Shown piece after piece: positions 6,067 to 63,299 of a DNA stretch of 64,000 nt. Below the pieces are notes generated by a model. The model was given only the letters and a program-made list of their open reading frames with translations. It ran no database searches and was not told the DNA's origin. The stretch is from Periweissella cryptocerci (GTDB lineage Bacteria; Bacillota; Bacilli; Lactobacillales; Lactobacillaceae): NCBI RefSeq assembly GCF_004358325.1, contig NZ_CP037940.1:1798001-1862000 (forward strand), written 5' to 3'. Both the position numbers and the translations under genes were made by a program. Every line of letters begins with the position of its first letter. Within the stretch, counting starts at the first letter, position 1.

Positions 6067-6482
6067 CGTCTGAGGTGGGATTTATAAAATGGGATGAGAT
6101 GTATGATGCCACTGCGTGCCAGAAAATCACATTGTGCACCGAGATGGAAGCACATGCCCAAGCCAAAGGGCGGTCTTGGGCAATTCGGGATAGCTGGCAG
6201 TCTAATGGCTAAAGCCAAAAGACTGCTCATCTACCCTCAGCGACAAACTCGACACGTGGTGTCAAGTTCGTCCCATTTCGGTGTAAAGCCTGTCGGCCAC
6301 AAAGTGATTTTCAGTCACTCCGCTAGATAAGCGTGGAATTATTGATTACCGCTAAACTTGCAGCGATAAGGATCACGGCATATTACTAGTCAGACTGCCT
6401 GCTTAAACTAACGAAGAGACTGGTTCCAGACACGTAGTGGGAATCAATCTGAGACACATATCAAAATTCCACGCTAGAAAAA
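6064..6482 (+). repeat. Structured intergenic element, copy 1 (divergent sequence type)
   Basis: The core is 6116-6318. Its closing helix P1 pairs 6116-6136 with 6298-6318 (18 of 21). P2 pairs CACCGAGATGG (6137-6147) with CCATTTCGGTG (6273-6283). P3 is the hairpin TGCCCAAG / CTTGGGCA (6155-6182). P4 contains GCAGTCT / AGACTGC and TGGCT / AGCCA (6197-6226). P5 is 6242-6272. P6 is GCC / GGC (6288-6297). Almost every helix differs in sequence from the other copies, yet pairing is kept. The outer frame runs from TTTCGTCTGA to ATTCCACGCTAGAA. Between core and right end lies an inverted core-less remnant (6404-6455). Function unknown. Confidence 0.85.
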
Positions 6483-6490
6483 TTTTAGCC

Positions 6491-6755
6491 ATTACTTGGC
6501 GCACCACGCTGGAAGCGGCCTCCCAAGCCAAAGGGCGGTCTTGAGAGGTTCGGATAAGCTGGGACTCTAAGGAATAAATTCCTAAGACTCCTCATCTCAT
6601 CCTCAGCGGCGATATGTGTTACACACATCTCACCCCAGTCGCGGTGTAAAGGCTGCGCCCGCCAAGCAATTTGCCGGCACTTCGTTAGTTAGGAATAATT
6701 CTCAGACAGCGAAAAAAATTACCAACCACAGGCCGCAGTGGTACGGAGTGGCAAT
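6491..6755 (+). repeat. Structured intergenic element, copy 2 (5'-truncated)
   Basis: This is the common sequence type in tandem after copy 1. P2 (CACCACGCTGG with CCAGTCGCGGTG), P3 (CCTCCCAAG / CTTGAGAGG, one mismatch), P4 and P5 are present. The outer half of the left strand of P1 is missing: GCCATTA runs straight into CTTGGCGCACC, a loss of about 15 bases relative to other copies. The right strand of P1 ends at 6680 and is followed by the usual TTCGTTAGTTAGG tail. No gene lies in 6756-6869 before the CDF transporter. Confidence 0.8.
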
Positions 6756-6869
6756 AAAATAACAAAATTATGATAGTTAACCATTCACTTATTATTGATT
6801 CGTGGAGCGAAATTCAAATTTGTGGCATGATAGAAGTAATGAAATTAAGGTGAAAGGGGGACATGCAAA

Positions 6870-7778
6870 ATGCAAGAACATGAACATGGTACCGGAACAG
6901 AGATGACGGGGAAGAAATTCTTCACGGTCACGATATTGAATTTGGTGATTACGGCGGTTGAAATTATTGGTGGTGTGCTGTCAGGGAGTCTAGCACTCTT
7001 GTCAGATGCTTTTCACAATTTGGGCGATTCCTTGGCGATTGTATTAGGTTACATTGCGTTCAAAATTAGTTTGCGCGGACAGAATGTCAAGCAAACTTAT
7101 GGATATAAACGCGCCCAAATTTTAGCAGCGTTTATTAATGCCATTTTCTTAGTTGGTTTGTCGATTTTTCTAATCATCGAAGCCATTGAACGCTTTTGGC
7201 ATCCGAGTCCATTGAACGCAGATTTAATGTTGATAGTGGCGGTAGTTGGATTAATTGCAAATGTAGCTTCTGCCCTCCTCTTAAAGGGTGGTAGCGAACA
7301 TAATTTGAATCAGCGCGCAACATTTTTGCATATTTTGAGTGATGCATTGTCATCAGTTGGCGTGATTGTCGCTGGGGTTCTGATTGCACTCTTTAATTGG
7401 GTGTGGTTGGATCCATTGGTGACGTTGCTAGTTATGGCCTATATCCTCAAGGAAGTTTGGCCCGTAGTAAAGCAAACTGTCAAGATTTTGATGCAAGCGA
7501 CACCAGATTTGGATTTTTGTGCCATTCAAGCTGATATTGATGTTATTCCAGGCGTAATGGGATCACACCACTATCACGCTTGGCAAGTCGATGAAGAAGC
7601 GGTGATGTTTTCACTACACGTAAATTTGCAAGACATGCTTTTGAGTGACGCCGAAGTGATTTACGATGAAATTAACCGCTTGCTGATGGAAAAGTATGAC
7701 ATCAAACACGTGACTATTCAGGCCGAAGTTCATCGTGGTGAACAAGAAGGAATGATTGACGAAGAAGAACAGATTTAA
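6870..7778 (+). CDS. Cation diffusion facilitator (CDF, CzcD/ZitB-like) metal exporter
   Basis: This 302-residue inner-membrane protein has six transmembrane segments. The metal-site motifs are DAFHNLGD in helix 2 (about residues 46-53) and HILSD in helix 5 (about 151-155), followed by a cytoplasmic domain of about 90 residues with HHYHAW. CDF proteins exchange Zn2+, Co2+, Cd2+ or Mn2+ for protons; the aspartate/histidine sites here fit a zinc-type exporter, but specificity is inferred. The start follows a strong AAAGGGGG site. Transcribed alone between the repeats and cspA. Confidence 0.9.
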   Translation: MQEHEHGTGTEMTGKKFFTVTILNLVITAVEIIGGVLSGSLALLSDAFHNLGDSLAIVLGYIAFKISLRGQNVKQTYGYKRAQILAAFINAIFLVGLSIFLIIEAIERFWHPSPLNADLMLIVAVVGLIANVASALLLKGGSEHNLNQRATFLHILSDALSSVGVIVAGVLIALFNWVWLDPLVTLLVMAYILKEVWPVVKQTVKILMQATPDLDFCAIQADIDVIPGVMGSHHYHAWQVDEEAVMFSLHVNLQDMLLSDAEVIYDEINRLLMEKYDIKHVTIQAEVHRGEQEGMIDEEEQI

Positions 7779-7806
7779 GACTAACATAGCCTTTTTATTT
7801 TTAGCA

Positions 7807-7815
7807 TGTTATAAT
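7807..7815 (+). promoter_or_regulatory. Extended -10 promoter of the cold-shock gene
   Basis: TGTTATAAT has the extended -10 form TGnTATAAT with a consensus hexamer at 7810-7815. It gives a leader of about 120 bases before the start codon, as usual for cold-shock mRNAs whose leader fold is temperature dependent. Confidence 0.75.
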
Positions 7816-61193: not shown

Positions 61194-61256
61194 AGTTTTT
61201 TCAGCGTGAATGGGCTAAAATAATACCCATGGAAACCAGAGGAGGAATTTTTATTT

Positions 61257-62870
61257 ATGGCAACTAAGTATATTTTTGTTACAGGTGGTGTGGTTTCATC
61301 ACTCGGTAAAGGTATTGTTGCAGCATCATTAGGTCGTTTGTTGAAGAACCGTGGATTCAAGATTGCGGTTCAAAAATTTGACCCATACATTAACGTCGAC
61401 CCTGGTACCATGAGTCCTTACCAACACGGTGAAACTTTTGTTACAGACGATGGCTTGGAAACTGATTTGGATCTTGGTCACTATGAACGATTCATTGATA
61501 TTAACTTGAACAAGTACTCAAATGTTACAACCGGTCGGATTTACTCAGAAGTTTTGGCTAAAGAACGTCGTGGTGACTATGAAGGTGCTACTGTCCAAGT
61601 TATTCCACACATCACTGGCGCATTGAAGGAAAAAATGATGCGTGCCGCACAAACAACCGATGCTGATATTGTTATCACTGAAGTTGGTGGTACGGTTGGT
61701 GATATCGAATCAATGCCATTCATGGAAGCCTTGCGTCAAATGAAGTCAGAAGTTGGTCCAGAAAACGTCTTCTACATTCACACTTCATTAGTGCCTTACT
61801 TGAAGGCCGCTGGTGAAATGAAGACTAAGCCAACGCAACAATCAGTACAACAATTGCGTTCATTGGGTATCCAACCAGATATGTTGGTACTTCGGACTGA
61901 AGAACCAATCTCTGATGGTATGCGTGAAAAGTTGGCCTTGTTCACTGACGTTAAGCCAGAAGCTGTTATCGAATCAATGGACGTAGAATCACTCTACCAA
62001 ATTCCATTGAATCTCCAAGCTCAACACATGGACGACGTTGTTTTGAACAAGCTTGGCTTAGATGCACCTGAAGCTGATATGGCTTCATGGAAAGAATTAG
62101 TTGATCATGTCAACAACTTGCACAAACAAGTTAAGATTACCCTTGTTGGTAAGTACACTGACTTGCAAGATGCTTATATCTCAGTTAACGAAGCCTTGAA
62201 GCACGCCGGTTACGCTGTTGATGCGGAAGTTAAGATTAACCACATCAATGCTGAAACAGTTAACCCAGACAATTACGAAGAATTGCTTGCTGATGCTGAT
62301 GGTATCATCGTGCCTGGTGGTTTTGGACCACGTGGTATTGAAGGTAAGATTTTGGCAATCAAGTATGCCCGTGAAAACAACGTGTCATTCCTCGGTGTCT
62401 GCCTTGGTATGCAACTTGCATCTGTTGAATTTGCCCGCCACGTCTTGGGTTACACTGATGCAAACTCAACTGAACTTGAACCAGAAACACCAAACCCAGT
62501 TATCCACTTGATGGCTGACCAAGCTGGTGTTGAAAACCTTGGTGGTACACTCCGTCTTGGTTTGTACCCAGCTGACTTGAAGGCTGGCACTAAGACTGCT
62601 GAAGCATACGGTAACGTGAAGGAAATTCAAGAACGTCACCGTCACCGTTTTGAATTTAATACCGATTACCGGAATGAATTTGAAAAGGCTGGGATGGTCT
62701 TTGCTGGGGTTTCACCAGATGACCGTTTGATGGAAATTATCGAAATTCCAGAAAATGACTTCTTCATCGCTGCTCAATATCACCCAGAATTCTTGTCACG
62801 TCCACAACGTCCAGAACCATTGTATGGTGCGTTCGTTGCCGCTGCCTTGAAGCAACACGAAGCAAAATAA
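61257..62870 (+). CDS. pyrG: CTP synthase
   Basis: CTP synthase aminates UTP to CTP with glutamine and ATP. The 537-residue enzyme has the N-terminal synthase domain (KYIFVTGGVVSSLGKG, 4-19) and the C-terminal class I glutaminase with nucleophile Cys in LGVCLGMQ (about 381) and His/Glu in QYHPEF. Codon bias is strong. GAGGAGG lies about 11 bases before the ATG. Preceded by the CTP attenuator and followed by murA. Confidence 0.97.
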   Translation: MATKYIFVTGGVVSSLGKGIVAASLGRLLKNRGFKIAVQKFDPYINVDPGTMSPYQHGETFVTDDGLETDLDLGHYERFIDINLNKYSNVTTGRIYSEVLAKERRGDYEGATVQVIPHITGALKEKMMRAAQTTDADIVITEVGGTVGDIESMPFMEALRQMKSEVGPENVFYIHTSLVPYLKAAGEMKTKPTQQSVQQLRSLGIQPDMLVLRTEEPISDGMREKLALFTDVKPEAVIESMDVESLYQIPLNLQAQHMDDVVLNKLGLDAPEADMASWKELVDHVNNLHKQVKITLVGKYTDLQDAYISVNEALKHAGYAVDAEVKINHINAETVNPDNYEELLADADGIIVPGGFGPRGIEGKILAIKYARENNVSFLGVCLGMQLASVEFARHVLGYTDANSTELEPETPNPVIHLMADQAGVENLGGTLRLGLYPADLKAGTKTAEAYGNVKEIQERHRHRFEFNTDYRNEFEKAGMVFAGVSPDDRLMEIIEIPENDFFIAAQYHPEFLSRPQRPEPLYGAFVAAALKQHEAK

Positions 62871-62879
62871 TTAGATAAT

Positions 62880-62917
62880 ACACCACTGAAATCGTTTTTG
62901 GTTTCGGTGGTGTTTTT
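62880..62917 (+). terminator. Terminator after pyrG
   Basis: ACACCACTGAAA / TTTCGGTGGTGT and T run. Confidence 0.93.
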
Positions 62918-62924
62918 GGCTCTG

Positions 62925-63299
62925 TTTCGTCTGACATGGGATTGAATAAAATTGGCCACTGCGTGCCAGTAAATTACTTGGCGCACCACGCTGGAAGCGC
63001 ATGTTCAAGCCAAAGTGCGGTCTTGAACAACTCGGATAAGCTGGGACTCTAAGGGAATAAATTCCCTAGACTCCTCATCTTATTCTCAGCGGCGACATGT
63101 GTTGCACACATATCACCCCAGTTGCGGTGTAAAGTCTGCGACCGCCAAGCAATTTACCGGCACTCCGTTAGTTAGGAATAATGCTCAAACTAGAAAAAAC
63201 AGTTACCGACCAAGACCGCAGTAGTATGGAAAAAATTGACAATAGAACTTCAGTAATTCGATGATTGAAAAGTATAGAAACGACAATTCCAAGCTAGAA
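62925..63299 (+). repeat. Structured intergenic element, copy 8
   Basis: Left TTTCGTCTGACATGGGATTG, right CAATTCCAAGCTAGAA. Core 62963-63163 with flanking CACTGCG and CACTCCG. P3 is GTTCAAG / CTTGAAC; P4 tip GGGAAT / ATTCCC; P5 GACATGTGT / ACACATATC. It lies between pyrG and murA. 63300-63579 shows no gene apart from the AT-rich murA promoter zone. Confidence 0.87.

What the first reader, a model, noticed from the sequence alone, without database searches (positions are those of the whole stretch)
6116..63299. Multi-copy, multi-helix intergenic element conserved by compensatory change
Eight close copies (6064, 6491, 23694, 37476, 44111, 51373, 59361 inverted, 62925) share a core of about 200 nt. 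A long closing helix P1 and a second helix P2 (CACC..CTGG with CCAG..GGTG) enclose three or more hairpins. Stems vary but keep pairing: P3 appears as CTCCCAAG/CTTGGGAG, GTTCAAG/CTTGAAC, TTGCCAAG/CTTGGCAA and TGCCCAAG/CTTGGGCA. P4 and P5 also covary. This is the mark of a selected RNA (or ssDNA) fold rather than a protein or simple terminator. I recognise no named family. Eight copies in 64 kb is a very high density.
Basis: seen in the sequence. Interest (0 to 1): 0.92.

Follow-up and report, generated by a model that had tools for sequence, protein, structure and literature searches.

The report
Paired RNA-fold repeats carried by transposon
The window holds eight copies of a small transposon passenger whose core keeps an elaborate RNA-like fold; the same fold, often as two back-to-back modules, recurs in many copies in several genera of lactobacilli, and I found no description of it.

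Summary
Observation confirmed; interpretation half right. A covariance model gives eight strong hits at the stated places; two-sided changes exceed shuffles on four of five measures. Three things change. (1) The copies are MITEs: about 390 bp, ends shared with a 1.53-kb ISL3-family element in this genome, 8-bp target duplications; about 240-250 per genome by extrapolation, partial copies included. (2) The fold is a separate module: a model built only from other genomes finds all eight cores and 112-118 hits (118 scored at most) in 8 of 13 Levilactobacillus-group genomes and 2 of 3 of another genus. No Rfam family matches. Close module pairs lie head-to-head in 22 of 24. Copies sit near gene 3' ends. 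What the RNA does is inferred: most likely a strand-specific 3'-end element acting on transcripts about to run into a gene from behind (about 0.3). New variant of a known kind (structured MITE-like repeats), unusually complex and widespread.

The parts
6065..6484 (+). MITE copy, D subtype (core; second module deleted, read by eye)
   Evidence: nhmmer chain; sequence
6131..6302 (-). structured core (strand = inferred RNA strand; reader read +)
   Evidence: R1 on +; R2 6125-6299(-)
6489..6764 (+). MITE copy, left end missing
6496..6664 (-). structured core (inferred RNA strand)
   Evidence: R1; R2 6487-6665(-)
23657..23956 (+). core copy with degenerate or missing MITE ends
23716..23884 (-). structured core (inferred RNA strand)
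   Evidence: R1; R2 23740-23812(-), partial
37465..37857 (+). full MITE copy, 393 bp
37457..37464 (.). left 8-bp target duplication GGAAAGTG
   Evidence: read
37858..37865 (.). right 8-bp target duplication GGAAAGTG
   Evidence: read
37525..37693 (-). structured core (inferred RNA strand)
   Evidence: R1; R2 37539-37666(-), partial
44106..44494 (+). MITE copy
44164..44332 (-). structured core (inferred RNA strand)
   Evidence: R1; R2 44178-44305(-), partial
51360..51746 (+). MITE copy
51423..51592 (-). structured core (inferred RNA strand)
   Evidence: R1; R2 51447-51562(-), partial
59355..59748 (-). MITE copy, inverted
59516..59684 (+). structured core (inferred RNA strand)
   Evidence: R1 on -; R2 59544-59694(+)
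62914..63304 (+). MITE copy
62978..63147 (-). structured core (inferred RNA strand)
   Evidence: R1; R2 62988-63125(-), partial
35726..35777 (-). solo left end of the MITE (truncated copy)
   Evidence: matches MITE left ends, D9, I15, I16

Best explanation
A MITE of an ISL3-family insertion sequence, carrying as passenger a multibranched RNA module of an undescribed Lactobacillaceae repeat family. Inferred: the ISL3 transposase multiplied the MITE in trans; the fold works as RNA. Proposed action (about 0.3): in a transcript leaving one gene and about to run antisense into the next, the module folds and stops, processes or caps it, helped by a protein that reads the conserved hairpin tip (CAAG, bulged A, CCG-NNCUU-UGG, CUUG). 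Head-to-head pairing would make the unit work from either side; the single-module copies here would guard only the gene upstream of the MITE.
For: MITE: end matches; five IS copies of 1530-1537 bp, each with an 8-bp duplication read, three with an open frame of 483-484 aa; ISL3 transposase family PF01610; 7 of 30 MITEs with perfect duplications of 8 bp or more against 0.04 on average (at most 1) in 50 shuffles. Fold. Independent model: all 8 window cores at E 2e-8 to 2e-6 on the opposite strand, 3 full length and 5 partial. Pairs under 250 nt: 22 of 24 head-to-head. Position: tandem sense 48 vs antisense 10, convergent 8, divergent 2; in the 48 the upstream gene is nearer in 44, medians 67.5 and 285.5 nt; Levilactobacillus sample convergent 6, tandem 7, divergent 2, edge 1.
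Against: No expression data. No consistent promoter seen in the central spacers (by eye). With each strand's own structure the share of standard pairs differs little (97.9/93.7/98.1% vs 96.8/93.6/97.0%), over more pairs on the complement (61/51/47 vs 50/35/45). Two close pairs in this genome are tandem, not head-to-head (window 6.1/6.5 kb, L070). In-place selection on single copies is only suggestive: rare changes 54 per 200 core sites vs 84 per 199 outside (p=0.01), but pair-keeping vs pair-breaking transitions 19:10 is not significant (p=0.14). Convergent enrichment in the Levilactobacillus sample p=0.08. Recombination between copies or template switching between arms could keep arms matched without function.
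Confidence: 0.7

Rival explanations
1. DNA-level repeat only: arms of the palindrome are kept matching by gene conversion or template switching between copies, and the fold has no function.
For: Hairpin alleles are shuffled between copies (between-hairpin linkage low), so recombination is active; MITEs need no RNA.
Against: Strand-biased wobbles in three genera and the U-G/G-U reversal (column pair 33/57, 17 vs 11 of 34) are not expected of arm copying; P1 arms covary across weakly linked hairpins.
Confidence: 0.2
2. Ordinary 3'-end element: folds in the gene's own read-through mRNA and acts as terminator or stability element, like REP or bcr repeats.
For: Near gene 3' ends; in genus g5 the outer helix is flanked by A- and T-runs like a two-way terminator (by eye).
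Against: In the window's genome the sense transcript carries the strand with fewer wobbles; window cores show no T-run after the helix (by eye).
Confidence: 0.25
3. Trans-acting small RNAs from a central divergent promoter.
For: Head-to-head arrangement.
Against: The 17 printed spacers of 40-106 nt differ in sequence and show no consistent promoter by eye; no promoter scan was run.
Confidence: 0.08
4. Single-stranded-DNA transposon (REP/IS200-like).
For: Bulged hairpins; orientation follows the replication fork in 61 of 72.
Against: No Y1 transposase found in the genome; 8-bp duplications; genes follow the fork equally (602 of 696); no orientation bias relative to genes elsewhere (sense 25, antisense 30).
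Confidence: 0.03
5. Non-autonomous retroelement moved by a reverse transcriptase.
For: RNA-strand signature plus mobility in Levilactobacillus.
Against: Reverse transcriptases do not track copy number: G269, with 72 motif copies, has none; 12 of 29 chosen genomes have one, low-copy genomes among them.
Confidence: 0.04

Closest known systems
Bacterial MITEs (Correia/NEMIS, ERIC, RUP; review PMC2229807, passages seen)
   Same: Non-coding, inverted ends, target duplication, intergenic, folded transcripts
   Different: The review describes units under 200 bp folding as long stem-loops; here a three-hairpin, four-way module with covariation, shared across genera and often paired
bcr1-bcr18 repeats of Bacillus cereus (passages of PMC3446304 seen)
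   Same: Dispersed intergenic repeats, some MITE-like, some with conserved folds, about half transcribed
   Different: No sequence comparison made here; different hosts; bcr1 called specific to the B. cereus group in a title seen in reference lists
ISL3-family insertion sequences
   Same: Ends and 8-bp duplication of the MITE
   Different: The RNA module is not part of the insertion sequence copies printed
REP elements and RAYT transposases (PMC3733652, passages seen)
   Same: Many intergenic palindromes
   Different: No Y1 transposase here
Rfam families Lacto-rpoB, Lacto-usp, lactis-plasmid (PMC2864571, table passages seen)
   Same: Lactobacillales RNA motifs
   Different: No match in cmscan; Lacto-int is listed there without an Rfam number and was not tested

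Membership tests
MITE of an ISL3-family IS | Inverted ends shared with an autonomous IS in the genome | tested here: met
   5 of 12 loci with an ISL3 transposase carry matching ends
MITE of an ISL3-family IS | Target duplication of the same length as the IS (8 bp) | tested here: met
   window copy at 37465. Most copies (23 of 30) no longer show a perfect one
MITE of an ISL3-family IS | Parent transposase of the ISL3 family (PF01610) | tested here: met
   22 matches over the cut-off, some of them fragments or with stops
MITE of an ISL3-family IS | No protein of its own | tested here: met
   no ORF of 100 aa or more lies inside the window copies; shorter ORFs not examined
MITE of an ISL3-family IS | Moves when transposase is supplied | not testable with these tools
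   needs experiment
REP/RAYT repeats | Y1 transposase in the genome | tested here: not met
Rfam 15 RNA families | Match at gathering score | tested here: not met
   Searches (window; 6 and 13 loci) gave only chance-level matches at the elements
Intrinsic terminator | Helix followed by a T-run | tested here: not met
   window cores, by eye; looks met in genus g5
Correia/bcr repeats | Sequence homology | not tested
   no reference sequences compared

The most novel reading that the evidence does not exclude
A genome-wide RNA punctuation system of Lactobacillaceae: dozens to hundreds of multibranched RNA modules, typically in head-to-head pairs near gene 3' ends, each pair placing one correctly stranded module on any transcript that crosses it, read by a dedicated protein through the bulged-A hairpin, and spread in some lineages by hitch-hiking in transposons.
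Probability: 0.22. Interest if true: 0.92.

Novelty: new variant of a known kind. Interest (0 to 1): 0.77.

Why it matters
A structured element with over a hundred hits per genome in 8 of 13 Levilactobacillus-group genomes tested has no Rfam match, and I found no paper on it in nine searches (open-licence papers only). Its abundance gives natural replicates for asking whether MITE-borne RNA folds are functional or merely tolerated, which to my knowledge is open for bacterial repeats; the paired arrangement and the strand signature make specific predictions testable with one strand-specific RNA-seq data set.

Tried and rejected
ssDNA transposon idea dropped (no Y1). Retroelement idea dropped. 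Replication-fork targeting dropped: orientation matches genes, which follow the fork equally. My first strand test on the own copies alone (C.A 172, G.T 128 of which 63 at one fixed pair) could be mutation bias and was replaced by cross-genus tests; the structures were predicted on the RNA strand and lean that way, one search does not. The hp3 class test was faulty (one class only) and is not used. Coordinates were wrong for minus-strand loci and were redone. A first count of close pairs missed two tandem pairs and one weak pair; one search recounts them (22 of 24). A strict terminator scan found 4 of 56 beside left ends and 3 of 43 beside right ends, T-runs 23 of 56 and 21 of 43, so a preference for terminators is not shown, although by eye several left ends enter the T-run of a terminator. 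Plasmid and phage blastn of the elements: none; a g55 locus matched 3 plasmid records but not at its elements; R2 on two Lactobacillaceae plasmids, 92 kb: best E 0.044. The parent IS was not found in the plasmid collection. Rows dropped: 71 cores to 64 by length to 63; the D core from A1 to A2; chains under 45 bits; 49 rare changes with poor local alignment. Elements in other genomes were mostly chosen by the hp1 motif, so conservation of that tip is partly ascertained; the 400-kb sample was not so chosen. Genome searches score only the best candidates (40), so counts there are lower bounds. Species of the window and of g55, g4, g5 not established; g16 is called Levilactobacillus because contigs of G019 match L. 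fuyuanensis records in length.
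Full report
Check of the observation. The eight copies are there. A covariance model (R1) built from 35 cores of this genome gives eight strong hits in the window and four weak opposite-strand shadows. In 63 aligned cores the strongest linkage lies within hairpins, linkage at 40 nt or more is low, and the P1 arms, about 190 nt apart, covary (three variable pairs, mean 0.145 against 0.032 for unpaired columns at that distance). So hairpins are exchanged between copies as units while arms stay matched.

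What the copies are. Each full copy is about 390 bp with imperfect inverted ends. The copy at 37465-37857 is flanked by GGAAAGTG on both sides. The genome holds ISL3-family transposases (22 matches, some fragments); five of the twelve loci fetched carry copies of 1530-1537 bp with nearly the same ends, each with an 8-bp duplication. Over 30 end-paired copies, 7 have perfect duplications of 8 bp or more, against 0.04 in shuffles. The copies are therefore MITEs of this insertion sequence. In 864 kb (the window plus 40 sampled stretches) there are 72 chains of 45 bits or more, 8 of them in the window, some partial or without core; hence about 240-250 per 3.02-Mb genome by extrapolation. Subtypes: A (one core), B (core lost between CACTNCGT repeats), C (about 110 nt in the hp1 loop), D (two cores, inverted) (by eye).

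The core reaches beyond the MITE. Blastn finds the element in none of four same-genus genomes, but a 22-nt match in another genus led to Levilactobacillus. The hp1 motif AAGCCRMAGNNCGGTCTT occurs in 39 of 397 family genomes (8 of 40 genera), 178 times in this genome and up to 72 in others; the reversed control pattern occurs once in each of 2 genomes. Model R2, built from 31 elements of other genomes, finds all eight window cores at E 2e-8 to 2e-6, three full length and five partial. It matches 18 of 24 genomes, many chosen for high motif counts: 112 hits in this one; 112-118 in 8 of 13 g16 genomes and 0-76 in the other five; 114 and 117 in two of three g55 genomes and 36 in the third; 66 in one g4; 8 in one g5; none in the four same-genus relatives (at most 118 candidates scored). 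An even 400-kb sample of one g16 genome has 26 hits, about 170 per genome. Downstream of one gene, present in 31 of 35 g16 genomes, the 30 loci read show elements of different subfamilies in several species and none in others, so the element is mobile there too (by eye). Covariation is strong in both other subfamilies: 93.7% paired with 37 of 51 pairs doubly changed (0/500 on all measures), and 98.1% with 23 of 47 (0/500, further pair types 1/500).

Which strand. Read on the complement, own cores pair 97.9% (pairs with double change reached by 4/500 shuffles, further types by 103/500) against 92.7%. Wobbles inside helices favour the complement 165:20 in this genome, 46:20 in g55, 60:31 in g16, not in g4 (9:8) nor in nine others (4:4). 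Folding each strand on its own gives lower consensus energies on the complement in three subfamilies, with more pairs, though the share of standard pairs is only slightly higher. Single-sequence energies agree: 54 of 57 own, 36 of 46 g16, 23 of 33 g55 and 6 of 9 other elements are more stable on the complement; in g4 8 of 11 go the other way. On that strand the hp1 tip reads CAAG-A-CCG-NNCUU-UGG-CUUG, and ends recognised in some g16 elements could form a purine loop.

Head-to-head pairs. In the 400-kb sample all 10 close pairs (under 250 nt) lie with RNA 5' ends facing, 64-106 nt apart; 6 of the 26 hits are unpaired. Seven of seven in other loci (one weak, L177) and five D-type units here do the same; two close pairs in this genome (window 6.1/6.5 kb and L070) are tandem and look like neighbouring MITE copies. 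Total 22 of 24. The window's A type keeps one module and, by eye, a remnant of the other's edge.

Position. Here tandem sense is 48 against antisense 10, convergent 8, divergent 2, where gaps of 40 nt or more are 384 tandem, 56 convergent and 57 divergent; in the 48, the upstream gene is nearer in 44. The fork bias (61 of 72) is like that of genes (602 of 696). Elsewhere there is no orientation bias (103 sites: sense 25, antisense 30, convergent 27, divergent 15, edge 6; 20 overlap a crude ORF); in the g16 sample the nearest gene end is a 3' end in 6 of 7 tandem units.

How it may work. Transposition in trans by the ISL3 enzyme is inferred from ends and duplications. That the RNA fold is under selection is inferred from strand-biased wobbles and covariation. 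The action is a proposal: a module that works on transcripts about to run antisense into the gene beside it; pairs serve both sides. Evidence for selection on single copies in place is suggestive only.

Comparison and novelty. It is a MITE by each feature I could test; the passenger is not in Rfam 15 at the thresholds used, and nine literature searches gave no description (listings and abstract starts seen; passages of PMC2267715, PMC2864571, PMC2229807, PMC3733652, PMC3446304 and PMC10969869 seen). Folded MITE transcripts are known in general; a cross-genus, often paired, multibranched and strand-biased family is a new variant.

Noticed in passing
window 14430-14521, 27868-27924 (inverted), 35027-35076, 51751-51842: A second intergenic repeat family: hairpin around AATAAGCCCGATTTCT...AGAAATCGGGCTTATT, some with GGCTGGGACATAA; a similar piece appears inside a D2 module near L090:16200-16350
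   Followed up: no
window 52482-53327: Three tandem 282-nt repeats inside a long minus-strand ORF (51886-54192)
   Followed up: no
window 35843-35986: Three tandem 48-nt repeats
   Followed up: no
window 3014-3126 and 34073-34185: 113-nt inverted repeat pair, 73% complementary, not explained
   Followed up: no
window 7803-8202: cspA thermoregulator (Rfam RF01766) match on +
   Followed up: no
window 23489-23579: TPP riboswitch (RF00059) on -, close to a core copy
   Followed up: no
G000 versus G001-G004: This genome is 3.02 Mb while four same-genus genomes are 1.8-2.0 Mb and show no match
   Followed up: partly
L071, L075, L080, L091, L100: Type C copies carry about 110 nt of further structured sequence in place of the hp1 loop
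   Followed up: partly
L124, L128, L130, L132 (genus g5): Simpler relatives; in some the outer helix is flanked by A- and T-runs, like two-way terminators
   Followed up: partly
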